Source: Actinomucor elegans (lineage: Eukaryota; Mucoromycota; Mucoromycetes; Mucorales; Mucoraceae). Taken from it: DNA of 64,000 nucleotides. This document shows, piece by piece, positions 11,091-52,950 of this stretch (its first letter is position 1; each line of letters begins with the position of its first letter). The notes under the pieces are model-generated. The model made no database searches. It saw nothing but the letters and a program-made list of their open reading frames with translations, and had not been told where the DNA came from. Position numbers and translations under genes: made by a program. The stretch lies in assembly GCA_026027325.1 (NCBI GenBank), contig JAMSLZ010000008.1:1426001-1490000 (forward strand), in the 5' to 3' direction.

Positions 11091-11339
11091 GGTAAATAAT
11101 TAATGATATATGAATTATATAATAGATCAATACTGGATATTTACTAAGGATGCTAAAAGATATATGAGCTATAATATGTACCATAGTATAGATCAGCAAT
11201 CAAAAAGTATAATTTAGAGAAAAATATAAAAAAAAAAACTATTTATCAGATAAAAGCATAAATGCGATTAGAGCAGCTATTGTAGAGAGACCAAATTAAA
11301 GTGTCGCCTAAATACAGCAGCTCTTTACAAATATGTACT

Positions 11340-11960
11340 ACTAATCAGAGGGTATATTGGATTGAGATCTTCCAAGTGATCTAGAGATTTGTATGTATTC
11401 TAAAATACACATCATTTACAATTGACCACTAAAAATATAACACTACTTTCGGTTATGAAAAAGAATCCTAACAGATTCAACAACATCTTTTGAACATGTT
11501 ACTATTGAGATGTGACAGTTGATCAAGATTGATCAAGTGATCCATAAATCGTTATGGCAAATTCACTCGGAAAATATTAAGTTTATGGCCCTTGATTAAT
11601 GAATAGTATACTCGCCATATTCAAATTAAATAATTATTATGATGAGTTTAGTGATTCATTCAGAACATATAGTTGCCATTAATGCGACATTAAATAGCAA
11701 TTAATTGAAACAATTAGGGATGTTAAAAAATGAGCCAAAGTGGTCAAATTTCAGAGGGATTCCATTAAGCTGAAATTTTTTATGAACAATTTGTTTTGTT
11801 AAGTAAAAAGACGGCATTCTATAAGTATTAGAAAACATGTAATAATGTGTTTATACATATTATTACTTCTAAAATATTCAAATTATAAATGCATTTTGAA
11901 GGATTCACAAGCCATCCCTTTTTCACAATAGCTCAACAAATGTAATGAAATACCAAACAC
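11340..11960 (+). repeat. Dispersed repeat copy A (left-arm orientation)
   Basis: Two GATC-rich motif copies (about 11345-11390 and 11505-11560, the second reading GAGATGTGACAGTTGATCAAG) are followed by a body at 11700-11960. The body aligns in order with the arm of the fold-back element at 43618-44335: GATGTT, then TTAAGCTGAAATTTT, then CATAAGTATTA-like and ATGCATTT blocks. It is heavily diverged and noncoding. Confidence 0.6.
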
Positions 11961-12417
11961 TTTTTAAGTTATTTGATATGCTATCCTACTCTCTACAAAC
12001 TATATTAAAGCACTTTTTACGCATCGATCATCTTCTGAAGGCTAATATAATTCCATATATTTTTATATCTTGTTAAATATATAAATGCCATTCTAAAGGC
12101 GTGATCTTTCATCATTATTTTTCTGACATTAGTTCAAATGACGATCGAAAAAATTAAGTCATATAGCAATGCCTTACCTAGTTGTAGTCACCCCATGCTA
12201 TGGAAAGAGAGTGGCCTAAACTTTAAATCGTATTTATAAAGGTACTAAACAATTAGCGAACGATGCTAATATATAATGTTTTCAAGACAATCAACAAATG
12301 AATTTCAATTGTTCAATACTGTGGTTTGTAGTTGGCTCACTCCTACTTTCAAATATTATCATAAAGTAACAAATAGTTCATCAATACTTTCGTTTCACAT
12401 TCTTCTGAAGAGCGGAA

Positions 12418-13735
12418 TTAGATGAATAGAAGACTGAACGCGTGGCTAGAGCAAGAATCCCATATAATTATGAAGAGTAAATGATTTGTTGTGCCCTCCA
12501 AACTTTTGGGAGTCTCAACAAATTGAACAGGAATACCATCAAGTTCAATGAAACTATGTTCAAAAGGGATAGCGAAGGCCTGAAAAAGCACAAAAAACTT
12601 TCTAGTGAAAACAGCAGCCCCCTTAGGGTCATGAGTCAATGTATTCATCAAGTTAATACTTGCAACAATCGATAGAATAACTGGATACTGCTGCTATGTT
12701 TAGGAGCGACAAAAAGTTCCTTAGCCTGCTCTTTCAAGAATTATCGAGATTCCAACTTGTTCATTGGAACAAGAAGCTTTTTCTTAATATGGAAACATCT
12801 GACACTTTTAAGTGGTAATCTTCATCATCCAGGATATAAGCAAAGTTCTTTCAAAAGTATACGCTAAAATCAGGAAAAAATATTGAAAAGTTCAATAAAC
12901 TCATCGCTTCATTCCGCAAGCAGTTATATTCAAATGCTAGATTATGTTCTAACTTGATTTTTTCATTTTAGCCAATTCAATATCTAGATTTATCCAGTGC
13001 AACTTTCATTTCTTGCTTGAGCAAAGATAATAAGGTGATAATGAGACTGTGAAACTGCATCTTGATATTTCCCATAAAATCCTTGTTTGGCACAACGACA
13101 AAAGAAGAGATAACGATTACCTAATTAAGTTTGACTGTGTATGTAGAAGAACGAATGGATAACACTTTTGTGACATACAGAGAATCGTATGCTTTCGTGC
13201 AGCTAAAAAAAAAAATTTAAGGCTCTGTTTTAACAAGAGATTGTGACAAAAATGAAGTACTGCCTGTTGCATAAAGCTTTTTGAAACGCTTGTAGTATTA
13301 TAGCAAGTACGACGAGCTTCATGAGTGAAAATTTTCACCAACTGATCACTGAATGCATATTTCAGTTCGTTGAGAAATGCAAGCAATATATTATGGAACT
13401 GAAAAATGTCTTTGAGGGGCTCGCTGCTGCTTCATTAACTGACGGAGTAAACATTTCTCGTGCCAATATCTATAGCGTGATAAACGCTTCCAATATTGCT
13501 CGAAATTTGCTTGATAAATAATGTCCGTAATTACTATCACATGTATTCTGATGAACGTGAAGCTATTCCTCTTTCTGGTTTTATCGATGGCGGTCCATCG
13601 TGCAATAATTCTAAGATTCACAACATTAATTTTGTATCTGAGCCTTGTTATCGCTATCAAATAAACCATATGAAAAAGGATGCCAATGTTCTAAATACTA
13701 TTGGTCTGATTCGTACAAGGAATCAGTAGGAAGAC
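12418..13735. pseudogene. Possible decayed coding relic, family unknown
   Basis: Several adjacent open stretches with protein-like composition lie close together but are broken by stops and frame changes. They are a minus-strand 77-codon frame at 12418-12651, a plus-strand frame at 13321-13521 and an overlapping plus frame at 13496-13729 (contains HMYSDEREAIPLSGFIDGG). I do not recognise the family. Chance open frames in AT-rich DNA usually lack such mixed composition, so an old mobile-element gene is a reasonable guess only. Confidence 0.3.
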
Positions 13736-14089
13736 ATTAAGTGATACGAATTGATGCAGTAGATTATTATGAGCGTGTACTTATTATTAAATACGACATA
13801 AACCTTGAATCGATCAAAGAATATAGAAATGTTAAAACTACTCAAATTTTCATTTTTTTTTTTTTTATTTTTTAAAGTACGCAAACAACATCTTTCAGGC
13901 ATTGTTTAGGAATATCGAGGAGTTGAATATTTTATTATTCATTTTGGAGATGGGGTTGGTTTCATTGAACCACTAGTAGTATATGTAGTAGAAAATTACT
14001 AAATTAACGTCATTCAATGAGAAAGGAATAATGAGCATTGGAATGCGTCGAACTACCGAATTTCGAAGCCCAGCTTTTTTCGATGTCCA

Positions 14090-14760
14090 TTAAACTCACT
14101 TTGAATAACATAAATATTCAGATACACAAAAATTCATTATCAAAGTTAATAAGCAATTAAATAGCGCATTGAATGATACAAAGAGTATTATGTTTTCTAT
14201 TATTTGATGAAAAGTAGGTTTTTCTTCCATTTTTAAATGCATCTATAACACATGTATGTTTTAAAGTACATCTAGACACCCTCTTTCTATACTATCTACC
14301 TTATACATAAAATAGGCCTCTAAATGCTTTCTTTAAGATTCGCAAAAGGAAATTTAAGTTTAAGGGTATATTCTTGGGATTTTTTCTAATGTTTCATCTG
14401 ACGACTAATACTTGTTTAGAATGAATTATTGCATCTACTAGACTATTATTTGGTAAAATTCAATAGGCATGTTACATTTTAGGGATTGACTGTAAACTTC
14501 ATGCATTCTAAGTAAACTTGAGATGATGATCTATAGATCTTCCTACTGATATCAATCAAATGTCGCACCTGATTGGTATTCCATGTTGATACTGAACTGA
14601 TGCATCTACTAAAAATTTTCACTCTACCAATTACAATGAACTAATTACTATATTCTTACAGGTTATTGTTAATTATATCTATTTCATATCACAGTATGTA
14701 TAGATCTAGAGATCTTTTCGGCTAAACTCGGTCAAATGTAGCATCTGATTATTAGTTGAT
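14090..14760 (-). repeat. Dispersed repeat copy B (right-arm orientation)
   Basis: The body at 14090-14400 (blocks ATTCAGATACACA, TTTTTAAATGCAT, TTTAAGGGTATATTCTTG) aligns in order with the right arm of the fold-back element at 44650-44970. It is followed by two GATC-rich motifs (14530-14600 and 14700-14760, the second reading CTCGGTCAAATGTAGCATCTG). Strongly diverged and noncoding. Confidence 0.6.
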
Positions 14761-23409: not shown

Positions 23410-25482
23410 TATATGGAAAAAGATGATAGAAAAAAGATGATAAAAAAGATGGACAGTGATGTTTTATATTCGTGTATTTATACAAATATACTGAACGCAA
23501 TCTAATGTTACAGCAAGAATATGGTTTACTCCGTCCAATCATCAGGTCATTATAATACATTTATTTGAAACTACGGCATCAAATCAATCAGAAACCTATT
23601 GCACATTGTGTTGCAAGGATTCAAAGCTTAAATATGAAAGCAGTAATTCTTAGCGTTCGTGTCACTTACATAAAATTACTGCGTTAGGGGTATTAATCAT
23701 CGAAGTATTATGTGTGAATGTCTTGTTTAAGCACTTAAAGTGTACTTCAGTAAAATGTGTTTTCCTATAATAGAACAAACGTAATGGCGCGTTATATATT
23801 ATTTTAACTGATGCTATTGTAGTACAATAAATGCACGCTACGCAGGTTCTCCATGCTTTGTATTGCATATACTTTCTTGTATTACTAATTACTGAACATT
23901 TCAGTTGATGAATATACTAGATCCTCGTGTTTAATGGTATGTAGCTTTTGTGGTACTTTTTTTTTCAATGATACTTGTACCCACGAAATCACTTTTATGA
24001 GTGAAGTTTCTTTTCGATTTAATGTAAGAAAACTTCTACAGCTTATCATAAATCAAGTTTATAAGTTAATGGACTGGAGTATAACCTTTCGAAAATAAAA
24101 ACATTAAATCAAATTGAAGATTTACTGGATTCTGTAATTTATTTTGAGCATGGACCATTGATCGGATGCGACATTTGACTATCAGTTACCTTTAGCGTCA
24201 ATTATTTATCCACCTTTTTTAAAAAAAAAATTGAAGCACAGAAACCTCTATGTTTATCTCAAGAATAGAAATCTTAAAGTACAATACTACAAATCGATAT
24301 TACACCTTTTTGAGTTTGATAAAAGTTATAGAACATGAAATCTACTTTTACCCAGTATACATTTTAAAAACTGATAAAAAAAAGTTTGCCCAGGATGAAG
24401 AAAATACTGTACTTTTAGAGCTACTTAGTGCCTTGTAAGCTGAACGTGATTTAGATAACATTTTATGATTTTGGGGACTTCCATTGAAAGTATCTAGGAA
24501 TTGATATAGCTAAGCTATGATAGCTAATGAAATTAATTTATATTTTTGTTTAGGGATTGCAAAAATCAATCATCCCTAGAAGGAAATCAGACGTACGTCT
24601 GCTAACCTTGTTGGTATCAATGGATTTACGGGTTTGACAATCAAAAGTATCTTTAAAAAGAAATGTTAAATTAAAATGGAATATATTTCACAACAAAAAA
24701 CCATTCAAAGATCTCGATATAATGATAGATCTTCTGATTGCTCCATGACATTCAGAATGAGCTTTTGGATTTATTGAAGTATACATTTATTTATTTGTAG
24801 GGGGGCGAGCTCGTTTTTTATTTAAGGTCCTTTAAACGTCCGGTGCGAAAGGAATAAAAGACTGGTATAATAAGATTAAATTAAGTTGACAAGTGAATTA
24901 ATGGGAAGAATTGGTGGTGAAGGGTACATGTGAAGATTTGATGTGAAGTAAGTTTGGAGAATAGTGGATGGGATGTTCGATGAACAGTCGGAAATGAAAG
25001 GTGTAATAATAGGTAAAACGAGGGTAGAGTGATCCTGTTGGGTGGTGAGGAGGGAAGAGAGTGCCGAATATAGGTGTAACAGATGGTTTGCCAGGCATGA
25101 AATTTGAGTGGGCATTCGAAGATAAAGTGATCTAGCGTTTCTCTAGTTGGAGTATGAAGTATCTATTTAAGTAAAGTACAACGTTCATTATCATCATTGA
25201 GAGTTATATGGAATATATAAGTTGATTTCTACTACAAAAGGGACTATAACAATTCGATCACGCTGAACGTGCGGTTTGTTTATTAATGTAAAAGAAAGAC
25301 CAAGATCTCTATATTGCACAGCTTGAGATCTATTAAATATTGTATTATTATTGAATGCCAGATTAGATGAGCTCAGATCTTAAATATGTGTAGTGCTTTG
25401 TATCTTAATACCGCATAGTATCATCCAGATACATGCTCATATTAAAGATTGTATGTTAATTACCTCCCAAAACCGTCAATCA
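23410..25482. other. Spacer with a solo repeat motif and a LINE 3' end
   Basis: The stretch to the transposon border contains the promoter of the NmrA-like gene, a solo dispersed motif at 24150-24190 (GATCGGATGCGACATTTGAC) and the LINE fragment at 24785-25155. The remaining DNA is AT-rich with no recognisable gene. Confidence 0.6.
24785..25155 (-). pseudogene. 5'-truncated LINE retrotransposon, 3' end
   Basis: On the minus strand one frame reads TPTRETLDHFIFECPLKFHAW and continues open to a TAA near 24887. This is the typical Cys-His knuckle and Trp end of a LINE ORF2 (E-H-F-hydrophobic-x-C-P pattern). A 3' UTR of about 100 bases follows and ends in an AAATAAATAAATG-like tail, as simple-repeat-tailed LINEs do. 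Upstream of about 25155 the frame is closed, so the copy is 5'-truncated or decayed. Confidence 0.6.
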
Positions 25483-30237: not shown

Positions 30238-30396
30238 TATATCAGTAAATATAATTAGCTTAATATTATATACCCATTTTGTATCGTTTATCTTATTGAA
30301 TAAAGAGTCATCATTACACATATGTTGTTTCATTATCTATACATGGTTAATACATGCAAAAAAGGTTGAAATATAAGTGGTTGAAATCATAGGAAG

Positions 30397-30643
30397 GTTA
30401 ACATGCTTTTCGAGTGAATTGCAAGTGAATTGCAAGTTAACATGTTTTTCGAGTGAATTGCAAGTGAATTGCAAGTTAACATGTTTTTCGAGTGAATTGC
30501 AAGTGAATTGCAAGTTAACATGTTTTTCGAGTGAATTGCAAGTGAATTGCGAGTTAACATGTTTTTCGAGTTAATTTAAGGTGAATTTCGGGTTAACCTG
30601 ATTTTCAAGTGAATTGCAGGTGAATTGCAAGTTAACTTGAATT
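30397..30643 (+). repeat. 39-bp tandem array, right subterminal region
   Basis: Six consecutive 39-bp units start at 30397, 30436, 30475, 30514, 30553 and 30592. Each begins GTTAAC and contains two GTGAATT-type cores. Units 2-4 are identical or nearly so, and the outer ones diverge. Because 39 is a multiple of three, an open frame runs through the array; it is not a gene. Confidence 0.9.
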
Positions 30644-30710
30644 CACTCGAAACGGCAACGATTCTCCTGCAAACCGAGTTAACTTGAAATTCACTCGAAA
30701 TTCACTCGAA

Positions 30711-34371: not shown

Positions 34372-35159
34372 ATGGCTTCTCTGTATTAATCTAACAATAT
34401 TAAATATCCAAAGTGGTAATTACTAAGCATTAAAATATAAAATGTATACATCAATTCCAGCTATAATACAGTCCAGAGTTTTTTTTTTAAAAAAAATAAA
34501 GCACTTTTTAAGATTTGTCCTAGCTACGCAGTACATGATCTCTGTTTTATTACAATGCACTAACCAACAAAAGGCTTTCAGTGGTACATAACAGTAAAGC
34601 AAACTATTACTATGTCTTGCGTTCAAATTAGTAATTATGTGTAAACTTTCTATCATGCCAAATGAAACCGTGGATGAACCGTTTAATTTATAATTTATAC
34701 TAGTATACCATACAGTATTAAGTGCCAGAGTAAATAATTATCAATGTAACCGTTACACCACATGTATCCAAAAGAGAAATGGTACCTTTGGACCTGCATA
34801 TTTTAGATCAGCTGTGTTTGGGATCATTGCGCTTTACATTTAGCGCTCGGTTATCTTAAGCTTAGCATTAATTGGTAAAATATCTCTATCTCCAGACCGA
34901 AAACGGAACAGGCTTAATTAACCATATATATATATATATATCGAATGATTCTTGAACATGGTTAGCTTCCCAAAAACGATGTTTGACCCAGATTGGACGA
35001 GAGATCTAGAGCAAATATAATATTTTAATATGAAATATGTATAGTTTTACTGTTTAATTATTAACAAATGTAATATACACATTGTATTTAGTTGAATAAA
35101 GATTTTGGAAGATGAAACTATTCATTCATAGCATGTATTATTTGCCAGACGCAATAATG

Positions 35160-35700
35160 GATCGAAAACGGCTGAAAGATCTGTCAATCATTAGATCAAC
35201 ATTAAAATGTATGAAAACATACATATCAATGCTAAAATGTAATGTACTATAGTGAATAAGCGAATCAACAGCTTAAATAGGCTAATGTTTTATTTTGAAC
35301 ATGTTCTAGCGATCAGATGCAATTTTAAGCCAAAATCGGTCAAGGAATGTAGAGACGTTAAAACAGAAAAAAAAATCCCCACAAAGGTACAAACCTGTAT
35401 GCACGAGTTTTTGCTTTTTAATAGAACGCAAGGAAGATGTCTTAGAGACACAGTTTATATGCATTATAGGAAATATATATTTAAGCACTAAAATGTGTCT
35501 TTTCGATATCTTATGCAACATATGGAATACATGTGTATCTAAAAAAAAATAGGAAAAATCGACTTTATCAAAATAAATTTTATTGTTCGAAGGAAATGCA
35601 AAAATTTTCTTTAAACTATTTAATATGCAAATTAATTGCGCAAATATTTCTTCTAATACGCTTGTTGTATATCTGAATATTCTCATTATTCAAAAAATCG
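35160..35700 (+). repeat. Dispersed repeat copy C (left-arm orientation)
   Basis: The motif GAAAGATCTGTCAATCATTA at about 35178 is followed after about 300 bases by a body whose blocks TAGGAAAAATCGACTTTATC, AAATTTTCTTTAAA and AATTGCGCAAATA match, in order, the left arm at 44066-44150. Diverged, noncoding. Confidence 0.6.
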
Positions 35701-35930
35701 ATTTGGAAGGGCTTCAGGCTTAAAATTGCTATCTGGTTGTTAACAACCAATGAGAGAAGACTAGGTTGAGATATGAAGAGATACGATTGGTCGATAGTAA
35801 TGTAATGATTTTTGCTTCAGGTTATCTCCTTGACTTGAACAATGCAAATGCTCAGACACAAAATTTGTATCTACTTGTCATTCCTGCTAAACCAGTTATC
35901 AACCAAAAAACCTCGAAGCTTTGACGTTAT

Positions 35931-35943
35931 CCCCCCCCCCCCC
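35931..35943. repeat. Poly-C run of 13 bases
   Basis: A homopolymer of C stands out in AT-rich DNA. It could also be a site of assembly or sequencing error. Confidence 0.85.
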
Positions 35944-36289
35944 TTGGTTTCTTCGCTGCTACTCCATATGCATTAACCTCTATGAACTTGATCACCTTTT
36001 TCACATTGATCTTCCTCATTCTACCTCACCTTCTTTGAGTTCATGCCTCTTAAATTGGTTCCTCCAAAGTCCACACAGCTAAACTGCTAGTGCCTTGTTG
36101 ACTCTACTCCTTACTCCGCCTTTTTACCCTTGATTTCAAAAGGATGTTTAGACTCCGCTTTCTTTCTGATTTAGCCTTGGCGATATAGGTGTGCCTTATT
36201 AACACCATGCGCTCATCAAGGGTTCCTTATGATAAAACTCTTGTTATTCTAAAAAATTAATAGAATCAAATTGCACAGCAGATGATGTA

Positions 36290-36950
36290 AATGCTATCCT
36301 ATACTTTCTGCAAGGATGAAGTTTATTTTGATGAAAAAACCAATTTTTCTACTTTTTTCATGCGTCTAAAACTTGTACGTTTCTTAGGGTAAAAAATATA
36401 ACGTAATAAATGTGTGTTCTCAAATTTGTACTATATATTCTATGCAAAAATATGCATCGAAAATGCTGTCTTCATACTCCACAAAAAAAAAAGTAAATTT
36501 CGATAATTTGAGTTTACTGGTATACCTCTCTCGGGACTCTCCCCAAACTCTGTCATTTTTAATGTCCATACATTAAGTCAATCTCAATTAAATGATACGT
36601 ATATTTACTTGCACATGCTCCATGTGAATCACTGCATCCACTATAACCATTATGACTAAAATTCAATGATTGTACTATACTTTAGTAATGTGCAATAAAT
36701 TGCATATAATCAAATTATGATCGACTAATGATCTACAAGTCTCTCGCGGTCCAATACAACATCTGAAGAATGGCACAAGCTCAGATTAAACGGCTGCCTT
36801 TGTAAGAAAATTTATTTTAAATGAAATACGAGCAACACTTTCCATTTATCAATAATTAAAACAACGTACAGTCATATAGTTATCGACTAATGATCTATAA
36901 ATCTTTCGGTCCTTCTTGGTCAGATAACATCTTGAAAGAGCAGTCGTATG
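36290..36950 (-). repeat. Dispersed repeat copy D (right-arm orientation)
   Basis: The body at 36330-36480 (CTACTTTTTTCATGCGTCTA, then AACTTGTACGTTTCTTAGGG) matches the right arm near 44806. Two motif copies follow at 36720-36780 and 36885-36945, each reading TCGACTAATGATCTA then TCTCGCGGTCC or TCTTTCGGTCC. This is the same order as copy B. Confidence 0.6.
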
Positions 36951-40783: not shown

Positions 40784-42787
40784 ATGGATTTATCCAGTAT
40801 GCTGAATGAATCAGTGCCGAAGAGTACTACAGTGAATAATACCGGCAATACATATCATCACCACAACAACAAAAACCACATGAGTAGAAACTATCCAATG
40901 GCGAATCATATCGCAAGCGCCCCGACTATAGCTACTACACCTCTTCCTACAAATAATCATACGTATCCTGCTAATGTCCTACCTTCCGCGAATCCTCAGT
41001 CAAAAGAGCGCACTGTAAAGTTTTTTTTTTAAGCATATATATTTGAGCAGTCACACTCACCCATTTTTTCTATAGGTGGCATATCAATTAAGCACGTCCT
41101 TGCAATACCTTGTAACCAAAGACTCCATCTTGAATCCTCATCCTACACCTACTCCACCGCCTTCCTTGCACGCACCCCATCAAAACTCTGCTACAAGCCT
41201 CTTATCTTCTCCTTTTAGACCCAGAACAGAGAATACGAACTCGCCTAGACTCAATGGTACGTATAGTAGATAATGTAAAAAAGGAAGTCCTGTACTAAGC
41301 TTACGTGTTATAGTTCCACAACCTTCAAGCGTTTCTGCTTCCCTCAGTGCTTCTTGTCTCCAGTTGGGTCATGCAGTCAGCAAAGATCCAACTGTCTGGA
41401 AACCCAAACTATCTCTCAAAATGATGATGAAGGAACAGCCTATGAATGTCAGACCTGTGAAACGCGCTCGACTAGATGATAATGCACAGGAGAGCACTGC
41501 AGAACAATGGACCATGGAAGTTCAGCTGAAAACAACTGAGATTAGTATTCGTGGTGATGAACCACCTGTATTATTAGAAGAAGTGTATGAAATCCAAGGT
41601 GCTTATCCTAGAGGCTTTTTTGTAATGATGGCTAAACGAAATGTACAGCATAACTTTGTATTTGAATATCCTTTACATCCATGGTTCGAAGATCTATACG
41701 GTTTAAGAAAGGTAAGTTGTTAAAAACAAGTTTTCCGATTAGTTATGTACTCATGATCATTTCTATATAAGAGTGCCTATGTTAGTATGCGTACAAACGA
41801 TGGTGAATTATATGAATTACACTTGAAGCCTTCTCGAGATAAACAGTAAGTTTTACATAGTAATGCAAAAAAAAAGTGAGTACTTACCATCATACAATAG
41901 ATACCTGTTTGGATATTTGATCAAACATGTAGACATGCTTCGTATTGTAAAGGAATCTTTAAATGAATTACTATTTCAACGAAAACTACCACTCGTACTT
42001 GATTTAGATGATACACTTGTTAGACTTGTCGGTGAAGGCAATGAAAGATATGTACCTGAAGCAGATATACCCAAATGTAGAGATCGCGTTGCTGTATTAA
42101 AAGATGGAAGAAGAGTAGTACTAACCGAAAGAGTACACGAATTTCTTGAATGGGCACAAAATTTATATGATATATCAGTCTGTTCATTAGGGTAAAGCCT
42201 TCCATTCTCCTAAATATCATTACATGTAGTCTAACCCTCCTTTTTATTACAGTGACCAAAACTATGTTGATAACGTAGTAAGTGTACTAGATCCTCAAAG
42301 AACTCGTATTCGTGGTATTTTATACTCTGCACGTACAGAATTTGAACATATCAAGAAATCACCTGATCCAGGAAGACCTCCCAAGGATCTGATGGCTCTC
42401 TACAGTTTCTGTGCTCTCAAGGACGGATCTATAGGGTCATCTTTTACCTTGCCTTTAATCCTTGATGATGAAACGCGTATGTGGCCCTTGGAGCAACATG
42501 ATAATATCATTGAAGTACTAGGACAAGTCAATACTCCTGTTTGGTCTGTGTCTCTCTTTCCTCATGTCAGAGATACACTACTACATGTACACAAAGAATT
42601 CTTTCGTCAATTTGATATTTGGTATGGTAGAATGCAAGAAGCTGAACAGAATGGCATGGTCTACAATCGTCTACCGCCAAGTGCTACTGGCATCTATAAG
42701 ATTTATCTTCGTCATATTTTACGGGATATGATCGCAAGAGGCCCTCCACCACCGCCACACTCTCTAGCCAATAGTAATCATCATTAA
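40784..42787 (+). CDS. FCP1-homology (NIF-type) DxDxT phosphatase, probable RNA polymerase II CTD phosphatase
   Basis: There are six exons: 40784-41014, 41076-41256, 41314-41711, 41772-41845, 41901-42191 and 42253-42787, giving 569 residues. The first 170 residues are Pro/Asn/Ser/His-rich and disordered. A middle region (EVQLKTTEISIRGDEPP through LHLKPSRDKQ) may be a beta-type substrate-binding domain that I do not recognise. The catalytic part has LPLVLDLDDTLVRLVG, with the DxDD(T) nucleophile, then TERVHEFLEWAQNLYDISVCS, LDPQRTRIRGILY and the second acidic pair ILDDETRMW followed by NIIEVLGQ. These are the FCPH/HAD motifs of FCP1 and SCP phosphatases, which remove phosphate from Ser residues of the Pol II CTD. 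No BRCT domain is present, so it is not a classical Fcp1 and resembles plant CPL-like forms. Confidence 0.85.
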
Positions 42788-43469
42788 AAAAAAGAAAAAA
42801 TACCGCTTCCCTCTTGCTTGTTTGTCTTCCTCGTAGTATATAACCTGTTGTAAATTATAAGCTTTTCGTGTGTATATCCTGCTACTAGTGCTTAAATAAT
42901 AAATTAAGCTTTCTTTGTATATGTAGAAGCTACTATTATGTTGTGTGACGCAACTAAAACGAAAGTTCTTGGACGTATAAAAGTTAGCCAAAACAAAAGA
43001 TTATAGCCCATGGATAATGAAAAGTAAAACATGCAGTCTTAGTATAACTTTTCAGACATTAAATCAAAGATGAAATAGGTTTCTACAATAAACTACATTG
43101 GAAACTATCTCATATCGAAGCAGGGTAATCCACCCCAATGAGTATGCACTGCTGTATATTTATTGTACAAGGTACTATTTAGTTTTTGATAATTCATGTA
43201 TATATGGAACAGTTTATTAATAACGAAACGCCTTTTCTCCTCAAAAACTAAAGAGAACAGTTGTCTTTATTACTTCTCCTATTAAACCGTCCCTATAGCC
43301 GAAAAAAAAAACTCAGCATAGATGGGGCTGGTAGGACAGATTTGGCTTTTCAATACATACCAAGCTCGAGGAATAAAGACCTGGATATTCATTATTCGGC
43401 CATTAGACAGCATTTCTGAAAAGATACAACAGTTTTTTTTTTCAACACATGCTATTTATGCTAATCCAA

Positions 43470-43520
43470 TGTGACATTAGACCGAGATTAGTCGAGGGAT
43501 TTATAGATGATTAAATAGCA
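43470..43520 (+). repeat. GATC-rich dispersed motif, outer copy
   Basis: CCAATGTGACATTAGACCGA followed by GATTAGTCGAGGGATTTATA gives the clearest version of the motif. It stands just outside the perfect left arm and has no mirror copy beyond the right arm. Confidence 0.6.
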
Positions 43521-43617
43521 TTGTTATATGAAAAGCGTATAATTTTCAAAACAACATACTTACCGTATCCAGTTAAACTAAAATTCAGTTAGATGAAAGT
43601 GTTCATTCCAAGCACGC

Positions 43618-45254
43618 ACCACTTAATAGACGTGATATCTATTAGATTGAGATCAACTGAGTGATTTATAGATCATTAGAACATGTCGACATGAAAAGCA
43701 TGTGCATGTATTTTATACTTGGTCATTAAAACGTAATATACTTAGGGTACATATATACTGAGTAAATAGTGGTTTTATTCAACTTAACTGTTCATTCTGA
43801 ATTTGTATTGTATAGACATCAAACGCGACATAAAATCAGCAGAATCGATTGAAGCATGTCGATGAGATGTTTGAAATGGTCCAATTTGAGAAAATCCTCT
43901 CTCAAGGATATACCCTTAGACTGAAATTTTCAAAATTTTCATTTCTTTTATAAAGTGCAAGGATGGTATTGTCAAGGCACACTTTATACGGAACATAAGT
44001 ATTATATTTGTTTGGTATTATTTATCTTGTAAAATATACGAGTTATGGACGCATTTAAAAAGTAGGAAAAGTCGGCTTTTATCAAAGCAAGCTCTGTAAA
44101 TTGAAGGAACCACAAGATTTTCTTTACATAATTTAGCGCAAAAAGTAAATCTAGCATACTACTTTGTTAACATGCTTGTTACTGTGTACCTGAACATTTT
44201 TGATGTTTGATGTACATGGTGTAACGGAGCTCGAAAGTCTAAGGAAGAAAAAAAACTGTATATCAATCTGTAAAAATGTCTATTTCGCTTAAATTCTTAC
44301 CCTTAATGTGCTGGTTGCAGTGTAGGGTAAACATCGGATAAGAATGCCTACTCTGTATGTGATAGTCGTATTGTTATTATATAGAAATTGGATTAAGGAC
44401 ATTAAATATTTTTATTTTGGCACCAAAATTCACAGTTGTTGAATTGTTTAGTACCAGCCATCCTCACTCAGGGCCAGCTTCTACTATGGCTCTTCTCATT
44501 GGCTATAAGTAACCAATCAACTTATCCAGTTGGGGTGATGTTTATCCTACGCTGCAACCAGCACATTAAGGGTAAGAATTTAAGCGAAATAGACATTTTT
44601 ACAGATTGATATACAGTTTTTTTTCTTCCTTAGACTTTCGAGCTCCGTTACACCATGTACATCAAACATCAAAAATGTTCAGGTACACAGTAACAAGCAT
44701 GTTAACAAAGTAGTATGCTAGATTTACTTTTTGCGCTAAATTATGTAAAGAAAATCTTGTGGTTCCTTCAATTTACAGAGCTTGCTTTGATAAAAGCCGA
44801 CTTTTCCTACTTTTTAAATGCGTCCATAACTCGTATATTTTACAAGATAAATAATACCAAACAAATATAATACTTATGTTCCGTATAAAGTGTGCCTTGA
44901 CAATACCATCCTTGCACTTTATAAAAGAAATGAAAATTTTGAAAATTTCAGTCTAAGGGTATATCCTTGAGAGAGGATTTTCTCAAATTGGACCATTTCA
45001 AACATCTCATCGACATGCTTCAATCGATTCTGCTGATTTTATGTCGCGTTTGATGTCTATACAATACAAATTCAGAATGAACAGTTAAGTTGAATAAAAC
45101 CACTATTTACTCAGTATATATGTACCCTAAGTATATTACGTTTTAATGACCAAGTATAAAATACATGCACATGCTTTTCATGTCGACATGTTCTAATGAT
45201 CTATAAATCACTCAGTTGATCTCAATCTAATAGATATCACGTCTATTAAGTGGT
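43618..45254. repeat. Long nearly perfect inverted repeat (fold-back), 718-bp arms
   Basis: The left arm 43618-44335 and right arm 44537-45254 are reverse complements, equal in length. The only differences I found are two transitions, both near the inner ends. The 201-base loop (44336-44536) begins GGATAAG and contains CTTATCC at 44521-44527, a further small inverted match. Beyond the outer ends weak complementarity continues for about 20 bases and then stops. Each arm is one copy of a repeat family seen elsewhere in diverged form. There is no open frame or coding homology. A transcript would form a hairpin stem of about 700 bp. Confidence 0.92.
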
Positions 45255-45478
45255 ACGCGCTCGGAATATACTGTTGGATCTTTAGATTTTGATACTTTTA
45301 GCATTTGCTAGTTTAACCAAACCACCATAATTCTCTTCAATCTAATTGAAAGACAAATGATTTCCATAATAACATACACATTCGAAAGCAATACTATGCG
45401 AAACATTTCTTCTAATATATATTTATTGATGTTGTTGTATATAATATTATGCGTGTGATAATATGAAAATAGTAATAT

Positions 45479-48384
45479 TTATGCAAAGGGGGCCTTGAGA
45501 GGATCAATGACTTTACCAAGTTTGGTAATAACTTTAGGCTTAGTCAATTTCAAGAAAGTTTGACGAGTGTTCCATTCACTACCCACAGGTGTACTAATAG
45601 ATCTTTCATATTGTTCCATTGTTTTGAAGGGGAATGGCACTGAAGTAACACGGTATTTTTCAGCCTACGTATGAAAACGGTTATTATCAATACATACAAA
45701 TGGTTTATCATTCATTCTTACCCTTTTGTTAGTTTTTTCATTAATAATGACATGAGACAACTTGGCATCCTTTCTTTGATCAGCAGCAATACCCTTTGTC
45801 ACCTTGATAATCTTCTTTTTCTTTTTATCTTTCTTTACACCGGCACCAGCCCATGATCCCCAGCCAGGTAAAGTCAAATCTTCAGTCTTGTCACCATCTT
45901 CTTCAATTTCAGCCATTTTTTCATTTTCAAACTCGGCAACGACATCGTCGTTGGCAAAAGCTCGAGCCACCAACTCTCTTTGACTAAACGTCACTTTATC
46001 CTTGTGAACCATTTGTCGTGTAGTAGCAGCTTCATCATTGTCGCTATTGTCGTCTTCTGATTCGGAGTCTGATTCTTCTCTGGCGCGTTTTGGCTTAGCA
46101 ACGGAATTGTTAGTGGTAGTTTTGATGGACATGATCTTTGTCAAGTCAAGTTCGACGTCTTCTGCAACATCTGTCGACAACTCCTTCTTTTTCTTGTTCA
46201 TCTTGGATATACTGTGTTCAGCACGAGTCTCTGTTTGACCAGAGATAGCCTTGTTACTCTTAGATGCTTTTTTGGCGAGGCGGGAAGTATCTGCTTGCAA
46301 CCAAGGATTGGATTCATTTTCCAAATCAGCCAAAGGACTATTATTCTTCAAGTTGACAGGTGCTGATGTACGTGTATTGTGTGCTGCTGAATGGGATACT
46401 TTCTTGATTTGTCCTGCTTCGTTGATAGTGACTGTGCCTCTCTCATCTTCATCTTCTTCATCATTCTCTACAGGCTTCTTGATTTGCTTGGCTTTGGCGC
46501 CAAATGCCATGCGACCAGGGTTATTTGCAACTACAGTAAAATGATCATCTTTCTTGTCTTTTTCGTCCTCATCACTATCAGCAGCAAGCCATTCTTTTTC
46601 AAAGGCTTCGGCGTCTTGCTTTGTGGCTTCTAATTGACGTTTAGCTGCATCTTGCATGAACTTCATGGAGAGTAAACCCTTGGTGGGCTGGGTATCATCA
46701 GCAAGTTCGTCCTTTAGCTTGCCCAATTGATTATTAACGTATTTCTCATCATCACTTTCTTGCTCATCACTATCCTCTTCTTCTTCAGACCCATCAATAC
46801 GACGACGAAGCTCTTCACCACGGCGCAATTGTTCCATGATAGCATCACGAGTACCCTCATCTTGTGTACCACGAGCCAAAGCACGCTTAGCCCACTTACT
46901 GGTATTCTTGTGCTTCAAAGACATACGTTCTTCAGCACGAGCCATGGCAGCATCCATCTTTTCATTGTCTTCCATTTCATGATCGAGTTCAGCCATCGTA
47001 TCTTTAATTTGCAACTGCAATTTCTCTTTCTCTTTACGTTGAAGCTTTCTATAGCTCTTAGACTTGATCTTCTTGAGACGCTTGTTCTTGATTTCGTGAC
47101 GAAACATCAATTCACGCATCATACGAAGCTCTTTACGCTTGGCTTCGACTTCTTCGACAGTTAATTTGTTCAACTTCAATGCTTCAAAGGCTTCCAATTC
47201 TTCATCCTTCATACCAGCTTGAGCAAGAGCTTGAGCGATTTGCTGCTCAAGAGGTGTTTCAGCTTTGAACTTATCGGCCATAGCAGCACTGGTACGTCCC
47301 CCCTTGGAGGATGCAGCTGTGTCTTGCATAGGAAAATACAAATGCTCGGCTTCACGATTCATCTTGATAGTAGGTTGCCATTTAGAAATTTCTTCTGTGG
47401 CGCTTACAAGTGCAGCTTGACGTTCCATACGGTCTTGCACACGCTTAGGCAAAGGCGCACTCAAAGCACGACGTGACAAGTTCTTGCCTTTACCAGCCAA
47501 AGTCTCCAAACCAGACTTTAATGAACCAAATGTAGCTTCATCTCCCACAGTGTCCATCAAATCAGCAAGACTAAGTTTCTTTGAGGCATCATCTTCATCA
47601 CGGGTGGATAAATTAAATTCGTTTTCTTGATAGGCTTCATTTCTTTCTTTCAATTGACGCTTTTTGTTTGTGGTAGCATCTTCATCGGCGCGTCTACGTT
47701 TTTTAGTATCGAGGCTATTGATTAAGTCAACGACTTTGTCATCATTATCATCATCATCATCATCGTCTGAGTCGGATGCATCGTCATCAAGAGCGTCAAA
47801 CGCACGCAATTCTTCGTCACTTTCCTCTTGATCTGCTGAGGGTTCCATATCGTTATCAGCATCAGTACTACCAAGCATTTGAGAAAGGTCTACAATATCT
47901 TCACCGTGATCGTTTTCAAAATCGCTAGCATCCTCATCAAAGTCATCCTCATCGTCTTCGGAATCCTCATTCAAATCAATCTCGCCGCTATTGACTTTCT
48001 TTTTCAGTTGCTTCTTTTGCGAAGGCTGTAGAACAAAGTTAGCAAAAGGAAGAAAGGTATGTAATAGTAGATCGCCAAATATACCTTGGTAGATCCAGAG
48101 AATTTATAACCTCCAAAACGCTCTTCGTCTGATTCGTCGAAAGCTTCATCGGAATCAATTTCTGAATCGTCTTCTTCAGCAATTTCACCAGCGTCATATT
48201 CTAAATTGTCTACCTCGTCGAGATCGTTGCCCTTACGACGGCCTGTTTCTTCCTCAGCTTCAAAAACGTCACGGGCTAGGGTTTTACTGATAGCATCATT
48301 TTGTGAATACTGTTGCTTCTTTCCTTTGCCTTTAGTGTTAAAGGGCTTTGCGTTTCCTTTCTTCTTTTGTTGTGGACGAGCCAT
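45479..48384 (-). CDS. UTP14: U3 snoRNP / SSU processome protein Utp14
   Basis: Exons are 48085-48384, 45722-48025 and 45479-45664 on the minus strand, giving 929 residues. The start at 48384 (MARPQQKKKGNAKPF) fits the basic Utp14 N-terminus; an upstream in-frame ATG at 48486 would add 34 residues and crowd the shared promoter. Long acidic stretches (residues about 55-190) are followed by the conserved core SAPLPKRVQDRMERQAA, ISKWQPTIKMNREAEHLYFP, KIKSKSYRKL, SLKHKNTSKWAKRAL, then LPGWGSWAGAG and the C-terminal VPFPFKTMEQYERSISTPVG and SEWNTRQTF. Utp14 joins the small-subunit processome in the nucleolus and activates the helicase Dhr1 during 18S rRNA maturation. Complete, with no anomalies. 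Confidence 0.95.
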
Positions 48385-50758: not shown

Positions 50759-51404
50759 TGATATCTTTTAGAAATTGCAAGATACATTTCTAATTAAAAA
50801 TTAAGCAGAAAAAAACAAGGCAAAAAACAAAACAAAATAAAGAGCTGTTGAACGATATTGTCTACTAGAGATTGCAAGGTACATTTGTGGTGTGGAGTGC
50901 AGTAAACTAAGAACATTCCTATGATATTATTTGTAATAAAGTCAAATAGAGATTTATTGTATAAGATTTGTATCTATAAACTTATCCAGAGCATTGTTTG
51001 CTAAACAGTTGAAAAATTTAACAATGATCTGTTGAAAGATCTACATATTGATCATTAGATCTAGTGTATTTAAGAATGAATGTAATTTACTACCAGAAAT
51101 CAATTTGTCGTATAATCATGGCACTTTAGTTAAAAAGTGGGTCCGCTATACCTAATATTTTATCCTAAATAAGTACTAACCATTTGATGTGACATTAAAC
51201 TTCAATTGATTGAGGCAATCTATAGATGATTAGATTTAGTTTGCTTGAAACTAGTCTGTCCTATGCTTTCTCCAAATTTTTGTTTGAATTCCCGCTTCGC
51301 TGCGGTAAACAAAAGCTTTCGCGAATTAATTCCAAATTTCAATATGTAGTGTATGAATCCTATGAGAGCATACTATAGACGTTTCCCTCCCTCTATTAGT
51401 TAAA

Positions 51405-51625
51405 TACTCATGTTTATACTATAGGTGTATTTTATACTTTTATTCTGAACTAAAGTGAATGCTTTTTCTATGGAATCCAATTACATGTTTATACTATAAG
51501 GTATATTACCTGTTTTTTCTTATGAGCCAAGGCATGTGCGTATACTATGCGGCACGCTACATGTTTTTCTGTGGATTAAGTAACATGCTTTTACTATGCG
51601 TAAGACATATGCTTCTACTATGAAG
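51405..51625 (+). repeat. Cluster of degenerate short repeats
   Basis: Variants of CATGTTTATACTATAGG recur at irregular spacing: near 51409, 51485, 51533, 51560, 51591 and 51608 (for example ACATGTTTATACTATAAGG, GCATGTGCGTATACTATGCGG split by drift, ACATGCTTTTACTATGCG). Function unknown. Confidence 0.6.
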
Positions 51626-52009
51626 CATGTTTAGTTCTGGTAATAAAACAAGGTCACTTTCCAATTTCTCGTGGTTTATCGATCACAATTAAACCCTTAT
51701 TTTAGTTTAAATTTTTGTAATGCATGTGATTTACTGCTGATTATTAGATGTGTTTGTATAGCATCCTTGTTATGTTCTAGCTAAGTAGTACATTTAGTAG
51801 ATATGACGCTCCATCCAAGAGTGTACGCCAGCAATTATATGTAGTAATAAACCAGGATCACCCATATCTATCTTGACCTAGTTAGAATAAACTGCATGTA
51901 ATATAATTCGAATTATGAAAGTATATTATATCCGTTATATTTCAATAAAGTACATGTTATGGCATTTGTGATAGTTTTGTTCTGAATATGTTTTAGTAAA
52001 TAGATGCAT

Positions 52010-52440
52010 TGTTAGCCTTGAATCAATCATGAGATCTATAAATTAGATCCTAATAACATGGAATCGCTATGGCTGACTGTGCATATACCTAAAACATAAT
52101 ATGTCCATAGACCACAGCTATTTGTTGGCTGTAACATATTCCGTGCTTCACTTTTAACATATAATAACAATCAGATGTGACATTGAACCCGAGTCAATCA
52201 AGAACAATAGAGATGTTCGAAATAGGATGATTTTTTAAGGAAGTATTACCTATAGCCAATTTTCCCACACTTTTTTTTTACGGAGCACAAAAAACGGCAT
52301 TTTTGAGACATGGCCTATAATTAATGCATATTCTGTATATTTAAAAGTAGGTGAGCGGACTTATTTGAGATTTTATTATGTGTTTAATATTTGAACTATA
52401 ATTTCAAAAAAAAAAGTTGCTTATTCAAGAATACATCTCT
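52010..52440 (+). repeat. Dispersed repeat copy E (left-arm orientation)
   Basis: Motifs at 52010-52055 and 52165-52205 (ATCAGATGTGACATTGAACC) are followed by a body at 52215-52440. Its blocks GAGATGTTCGAAAT, GCCAATTTT, AACGGCATTTTTGAG and TTTAAAAGTAGGTGAG follow the order of the fold-back arm. Diverged. Confidence 0.55.
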
Positions 52441-52950
52441 CAATGGAAGGACAGAGTAGACTATTTTTATCAACGATTGTTCCAGATAAAAATTTGGTTC
52501 ATTTTTTTTTGTGCGGCCTGAGCGCGTACCAAACTCCATGTCTTAAAGCGCCGAAACCAATGAAATCAAAGAAATCAAATAATGAAATATCTTTTTTTGT
52601 GTCGATTTCTGATGGCATAAGCTAACTTTATTCCTTACTTCCCAAAGTATATATTTGTTTATGTTAAAGTTTTGATTGATCATTGCAAAACTAAAGTGAG
52701 TATACATCAATAGATGGGCTCAAAGGAAATGAATATGTAGATTCTATTCAGAAGCTAAGAACTAGAGAGTGCATTATTTTTTTAATTATTATTAAATACA
52801 TAGGAACAGAGAGCGAAATAAAAAGAGCATTATTATAAATATAGTCTATACATAGTATGAGTGCTAAGGAAGGGGATGTGATTAGTGTGAGTATATCAAA
52901 ACGATAGGAATGGATTTATAAAGGATAGTGAAGGATAGGGATAAAACATT

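What the first reader, a model, noticed from the sequence alone, without database searches (positions are those of the whole stretch)
43618..45254. Near-perfect palindrome with 718-bp arms and a 201-bp loop
Equal-length arms differ at only two positions that I found, both transitions near the loop. Such a structure must be young or actively homogenised, because other copies of the same sequence in the window are heavily diverged. Transcribed from either side it would give a stem of about 700 bp, a strong Dicer substrate. Mucorales have working RNAi, so it could seed small RNAs against the dispersed repeat family.
Basis: partly seen in the sequence, partly recalled or inferred. Interest (0 to 1): 0.8.

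Follow-up and report, generated by a model that had tools for sequence, protein, structure and literature searches.

The report
Old repeat with one arm rewritten
A long palindrome in a Mucor-like fungus is one copy of an ancient, scattered inverted-repeat element whose two halves should have drifted apart like those of its sister copies, but one half appears to have been recently overwritten with a mirror copy of the other; there is no sign so far that it works as a small-RNA gene.

Summary
The palindrome is real: 718-bp arms (43618-44335 / 44537-45254), two transitions, 201-bp loop. Homology runs 13 bp further out with three more transitions. All five differences lie in the terminal 13 + 15 bp; the 703 bp between are identical.

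It belongs to a high-copy family of foldback-like elements: long inverted arms built of ~170-bp tandem units plus an inner segment. A 20-base unit motif has 754 genomic matches, against 5 for its reversed control. Seven other inverted pairs aligned have arms 52.5-58.1% identical, like any two copies (median 52.5%); here 99.8% over 555 bp. Yet the arm itself is as decayed as other copies (68.0% to a leave-one-out consensus; range 58.2-72.4%), and no close copy was found elsewhere.

Best reading: an old element in which one arm was recently replaced by an inverted copy of the other, by fold-back template switching or gene conversion. A recent jump or assembly error fits less well. Dicer and RdRP domains are present, but silencing of the family in trans is doubtful: longest exact match in sampled copies 19 nt. 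No RNA data were available.

The parts
43605..44335 (+). left arm; 43618-44320 is identical to 44552-45254 of the right arm
44336..44536 (.). 201-bp loop; weakly collinear with the centre of one sister element (L019)
44537..45267 (-). right arm (inverted copy); likely the overwritten one
   Evidence: direction is inference
43459..43616 (+). outer ~170-bp unit X1 of the left arm, joined directly to X2 as in sister elements; dispersed relatives of 77-89% identity over about 45-92 bp at 5 other places
   Evidence: 82.4 bits; this unit was among those the model was built from
43619..43808 (+). unit X2, outer part of the left arm
45064..45254 (-). unit X2 of the right arm; no X1 unit is recognisable outside it
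45255..45281 (-). possible relic of the old right-hand X1 tail (18 of 27 matches to the left side)
   Evidence: length chosen afterwards
43941..44109 (+). inner segment of the arm shared with the family
44763..44931 (-). same inner segment, right arm
34966..36944. sister element E2: X1, X2 and inner segment in an inverted pair, arms 52.5% or 54.0% identical
11335..14756 (.). sister element E1: inverted pair with ~2.1-kb centre, arms 56% identical
51001..52468 (+). further family copy with several tandem X units; no partner arm found
41863..42787 (+). NIF-phosphatase-like gene (two open pieces) reading towards the palindrome
   Evidence: first piece 21.3 bits, just under the 21.8 cut-off; second piece no match
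45479..47974 (-). Utp14 gene reading towards the palindrome; joining of the last open piece (ending 45479) to it is inference

Best explanation
This is one old copy of an abundant foldback-like (long terminal inverted repeat) DNA element family. Shown: family membership, inverted-arm architecture, arm as decayed as sister copies, arms identical over 703 bp, all differences at the two ends. Inferred: after the element had decayed, one event of fold-back template switching (or break-induced copying or gene conversion) replaced one arm with an inverted copy of the other; the copy began and ended in short stretches of leftover arm homology (15 bp inside, 13-27 bp outside), which still carry the old differences. 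The left arm was probably the template, because its X1/X2 junction is intact while the right side loses the family beyond the tract. A function of the palindrome is not shown; the default is none.
For: Seven other inverted pairs aligned (E1, E2, L019, L020, L022, L058, L065) have arms 52.5-58.1% identical; 627 copy pairs (those seven included, E3's own pair left out) have median 52.5% and maximum 65.5%; E3 has 99.8% over 555 bp. The arm is 68.0% identical to a leave-one-out consensus, within the 58.2-72.4% range of 30 rows. No near copy found elsewhere and none of the loop. Five of five mismatches fall in 28 of 731 positions (about 8e-8 if uniform, interval chosen after seeing them). Anchored extension beyond the identical tract scores above all of 2000 random placements on each side. 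The loop aligns with the centre of L019 in the same orientation (58 against a maximum of 50 in 200 shuffles; z 5.5; z 4.8).
Against: No outgroup or second strain could be read, so the old right arm is inferred, not seen. In the leave-one-out profile test the arm ranks first of 29 (226.9 bits, next 220.9 and 213.9), which could mean slight youth, or bias, since the family was recruited from this arm. The loop matches only L019 clearly: E1, E2, L020, L022, L023, L029, L045 and L058, L065 gave no clear match; an earlier test of 28 inner regions gave z at most 4.0. The right flank holds no recognisable X1 unit (summed z -0.36). Three further inverted pairs seen (L023, L029, L045) have short partner arms and were not; a gap-lenient alignment gives L045 77.3% over 75 bp, BLAST gives L023 69.3% over 153 bp and L029 92% over 25 bp. 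The genome search warns that no match does not prove rarity. No evidence separates a single template switch from gene conversion.
Confidence: 0.67

Rival explanations
1. Repeated arm-to-arm gene conversion has kept the two arms alike ever since insertion, as in mammalian sex-chromosome palindromes and C. elegans inverted repeats.
For: Would also leave differences only at the arm ends. Precedent: long near-perfect inverted repeats kept over long times in nematodes (PMC1803023, abstract and passages).
Against: Sister elements of similar geometry (L019, loop about 212 bp; L065, about 273 bp) were not maintained; their arms are 55.2% and 56.4% identical.
Confidence: 0.17
2. A recent transposition of a long-TIR element whose arms have had no time to diverge.
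For: Arms identical; the family was clearly dispersed in the past; the arm scores highest in the leave-one-out profile test.
Against: No sibling copy found: best other match 80% over 91 bp. Arm as decayed as other copies by consensus identity. No target-site duplication seen. Left X1 is a diverged unit directly joined, the right side lacks it.
Confidence: 0.07
3. Assembly error: one arm placed twice.
For: Inverted repeats are hard to assemble; reads could not be checked.
Against: The loop has no other match in the genome, flanks run into separate genes on both sides, and the arm ends carry differences; an artefact would need two wrong joins at homologous places. 36.5 Mb in 27 contigs suggests long reads (inference).
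Confidence: 0.06
4. A hairpin-RNA locus kept by selection that feeds Dicer with about 700 bp of dsRNA.
For: Perfect stem; Dicer and RdRP domains present; a hairpin transgene silenced its target in 104 of 137 M. circinelloides transformants (PMC3720535, passages); two genes read towards it.
Against: No transcript data; an AATAAA lies 52 nt past the Utp14 stop and six AATAAA/ATTAAA hexamers lie between the left gene and the left arm, though such hexamers are common in AT-rich DNA; no sampled copy shares more than 19 nt exactly.
Confidence: 0.03

Closest known systems
Foldback / Galileo-type long-TIR DNA transposons (Drosophila)
   Same: Long, internally repetitive arms; copies reduced to two arms and a spacer; recombination and conversion of long TIRs proposed for Galileo (PMC3573991, start of abstract and passages).
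   Different: No transposase or target-site duplication was found here, and no sequence kinship was tested; superfamily unknown.
Inverted repeats homogenised between arms (C. elegans/briggsae/remanei; Y-chromosome palindromes)
   Same: Old inverted repeat, short spacer, arms above 99% identical (PMC1803023, abstract and passages; PMC3723533, start of abstract only).
   Different: Here the sequence is a decayed repeat element, not a gene pair, and the sister elements measured were not maintained.
Quasipalindrome correction by template switching (yeast, bacteria)
   Same: An imperfect inverted repeat becomes perfect by copying one arm (PMC8604942, passages).
   Different: The cases in the passages I saw have arms of 4-16 bp; here about 700 bp.
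MITEs
   Same: Non-coding, terminal inverted repeats, high copy number.
   Different: Larger (about 1.4-3.4 kb), with tandem-unit arms and no target-site duplication found.

Membership tests
Foldback/Galileo-type long-TIR element | Long terminal inverted repeats (hundreds of bp) | tested here: met
   E1, E2, E3, L019, L020, L022, L058, L065 each hold family arms in inverted orientation
Foldback/Galileo-type long-TIR element | Tandem subunits inside the arms | tested here: met
   ~170-bp X units tile head to tail at arm ends
Foldback/Galileo-type long-TIR element | Transposase in full-length relatives | tested here: inconclusive
   7 of the 26 open pieces listed around E1 were scanned: no Pfam family above its cut-off; one piece has no other match in the genome
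Foldback/Galileo-type long-TIR element | Target-site duplication | tested here: inconclusive
   none seen by eye at 5 elements; termini uncertain because units are tandem
MITE | Short length (a few hundred bp; definition recalled) | tested here: not met
   E1 3.4 kb, E2 2.0 kb, L019 1.4 kb
MITE | Target-site duplication | tested here: inconclusive
   none seen at 5 elements
Arm-homogenised inverted repeat | Arms far more alike than their age allows | tested here: met
   99.8% against 52.5-58.1% in 7 sister pairs; arm decay typical of the family
Arm-homogenised inverted repeat | Structure conserved in related species while sequence changes | not testable with these tools
   no DNA of related strains or species was available
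Endogenous hairpin-RNA locus | Transcript across both arms and Dicer-sized RNAs | not testable with these tools
   no RNA data
Endogenous hairpin-RNA locus | RNAi machinery present | tested here: met
   Dicer_dimer at 2 places, RdRP at 3 loci; domains only, activity not tested; Argonaute not searched

The most novel reading that the evidence does not exclude
One replication or repair event copied at least 703 bp of one arm onto its partner although the two had already diverged to roughly 55% identity, turning a dead quasi-palindrome into a perfect hairpin in a single step. Dispersed dead foldback elements would then be a standing reservoir from which new hairpin-RNA loci can appear suddenly in an RNAi-proficient fungus.
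Probability: 0.3. Interest if true: 0.6.

Novelty: new variant of a known kind. Interest (0 to 1): 0.42.

Why it matters
It separates the age of an element from the age of its symmetry: sister copies act as an internal clock showing that the arms should be unalike. If one step did this over 700 bp, it would extend the template-switch mechanism known from very short inverted repeats to a far larger scale and give a route by which a dead transposon becomes a hairpin-RNA source. The family itself is a useful annotation target in this genome.

Tried and rejected
Rejected: element boundaries equal to palindrome boundaries (left X1 lies outside). An X1 unit on the right flank (none). A transposase from the E1 centre (none found in the pieces tried). 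Rfam RNA (none) and a structured loop (z -0.25). The bacterial promoter/terminator scan is not informative for a fungus. Arm identities (64.5-77.3% for sister arms, and 67.6% over 102 bp for E3's two outer flanks) come from a gap-lenient aligner that inflates identity for AT-rich DNA; the multiple-alignment figures are used instead. Base rate of palindromes: a scan of the window and the loci held then (L001-L068; 284,499 bases, overlapping in part) found no other inverted repeat of 100 bp or more at 80% or more, too small a sample to call it unique in the genome. Dropped rows: L021 left out as a 99.3% duplicate of L019; one of E3's two identical arms left out; L023, L029, L045 pairs not (short partner arms). 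Searches searched papers for Mucor/Mucorales inverted-repeat families; the 20 and 15 papers listed (of 146 and 312) showed none on this family by title, which is no proof of absence.

Full report
WHAT IS THERE. The two arms 43618-44335 and 44537-45254 are 718 bp each, 201 bp apart, and differ at 44321 and 44327 only. Homology continues 13 bp outward with three transitions, so 731-bp arms with five transitions in all; the 703 bp from 43618 to 44320 are identical to the other side. The window is C26:1426001-1490000 of a 36.5-Mb, 27-contig genome. The neighbouring Utp14 protein is 72% identical to a Mucor circinelloides entry, 74% (81% covered) to Mucor lusitanicus, 70% to Parasitella, and 85% to an unnamed JGI entry, so this is a Mucor-like Mucorales fungus whose species I could not name. 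The palindrome lies between two genes that read towards it: a NIF-phosphatase-like gene on the left (just under the Pfam cut-off) and Utp14 on the right.

THE FAMILY. No near copy of the arm was found elsewhere in the genome: the best other matches are 80% over 91 bp and 77% over 94 bp (the tool warns that such a search does not prove rarity). The left outer flank unit has relatives of 77-89% over about 45-92 bp at five places. Iterated profile searches find diverged copies in the window at 11500-12007 (+), 14138-14582 (-), 35135-35644 (+), 36260-36772 (-), 52021-52469 (+) and partial ones. Four of these form inverted pairs, E1 (11335-14756) and E2 (34966-36944), the same layout as the palindrome (E3). 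At the arm ends sit ~170-bp units in head-to-tail tandem; E3 has two on the left (43459-43616, 43619-43808) and one on the right. A 20-base motif of the unit has 363 + 391 matches with up to three mismatches in the genome, against 5 + 0 for the reversed control; a 25-base motif has 82 + 84 against 0; a 26-base motif of the inner segment has only 6, two of them E3 itself, so the inner segment is less well kept. Fetched copies show more inverted pairs: L019 (with its 99.3% duplicate L021), L020, L022, L058, L065, and shorter ones L023, L029, L045. The family is thus a high-copy, long-inverted-repeat element of foldback type. No transposase or target-site duplication was found.

OLD ELEMENT, NEW SYMMETRY. 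In one alignment the partner arms of seven other elements (E1, E2, L019, L020, L022, L058, L065) are 52.5-58.1% identical, hardly more than any two copies (627 pairs, median 52.5%, maximum 65.5%), whereas E3's arms are 99.8% identical over the 555 bp aligned. The E3 arm does not look young: it is 68.0% identical to a consensus made without it, within 58.2-72.4% for the 30 rows. In a leave-one-out profile test it scored highest of 29, in line with the next (226.9 against 220.9 and 213.9 bits); since the family was gathered starting from this arm, some bias towards it is expected. The loop aligns in the same orientation with the centre of L019, not clearly with the nine other centres tried (E1, E2, L020, L022, L023, L029, L045; L058, L065). 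Just outside the identical tract the two sides still match: 13 of 15 inside, 10 of 13 (18 of 27) outside; the anchored extension scores above all of 2000 random placements on each side. So an old element carries two arms that ought to have drifted apart, and they have not.

HOW. The simplest account is that one arm was overwritten by an inverted copy of the other. The five differences sit only in the last 13 and 15 bp (about 8e-8 if spread evenly, with the interval chosen after seeing them), which is what a copy that starts and stops in leftover homology would leave. The left X1/X2 junction is like that of sister elements while the right side has no recognisable X1, so the left arm was probably the template. 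Template switching within inverted repeats is known to make imperfect ones perfect (PMC8604942, passages, arms of 4-16 bp in the cases seen), and long inverted repeats are kept alike in nematodes and on sex chromosomes (PMC1803023, abstract and passages; PMC3723533, start of abstract). Which of single template switch, break-repair copying or gene conversion acted here cannot be decided without an outgroup. With no difference in 703 bp, the rule-of-three upper bound on divergence since the event is about 0.4% (inference).

RNA INTERFERENCE. The genome has two Dicer-dimer domains and RdRP domains at three loci. In M. circinelloides a hairpin transgene silenced its target in 104 of 137 transformants (PMC3720535, passages). 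If transcribed, this stem should therefore be diced (inference). But nothing shows that it is transcribed; poly(A)-type hexamers lie before it, six on the left and one on the right (weak evidence); and RNAs from the arm would share at most 19 exact bases with the copies sampled. Silencing of the family in trans is unlikely; silencing of read-through transcripts of the two neighbours is possible and untested.

VERDICT. Ordinary in its parts, unusual in the length and lateness of the rewrite. On checking, the confidence in the best explanation was lowered from 0.68 to 0.67 and that of continual conversion raised from 0.16 to 0.17, because three short inverted pairs had been left out of the comparison.

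Noticed in passing
window 30358-30669: Tandem array with a 39-bp period, six 117-bp copies in register, 72-98% identical to the reference copy.
   Followed up: no
L069 (C20:3001-8400): On the 43.9-kb contig C20 one family-unit motif recurs every 5,030-5,034 bp (four listed hits), suggesting a tandem array of ~5-kb units; the 5.4 kb read holds weak pieces of this family and no Rfam match.
   Followed up: partly
L019 / L021: A stretch of about 3 kb (the whole of both loci) near the start of contig C9 is 99.3% identical to one on C12 in the opposite orientation: segmental duplication or redundant contig.
   Followed up: no
window 12008-14137: Centre of element E1 holds short broken frames; the 7 pieces scanned have no Pfam family above its cut-off, and the one piece tried has no other match in the genome.
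   Followed up: partly
window 25258-25463: A stretch 76.7% identical to L011:1002-1201, perhaps a second dispersed repeat.
   Followed up: no
window, whole: The 20-base unit motif occurs 6 times in this 64-kb window, about 4.5 times the genome average implied by 754 hits; partly because the motif was built largely from this window.
   Followed up: partly
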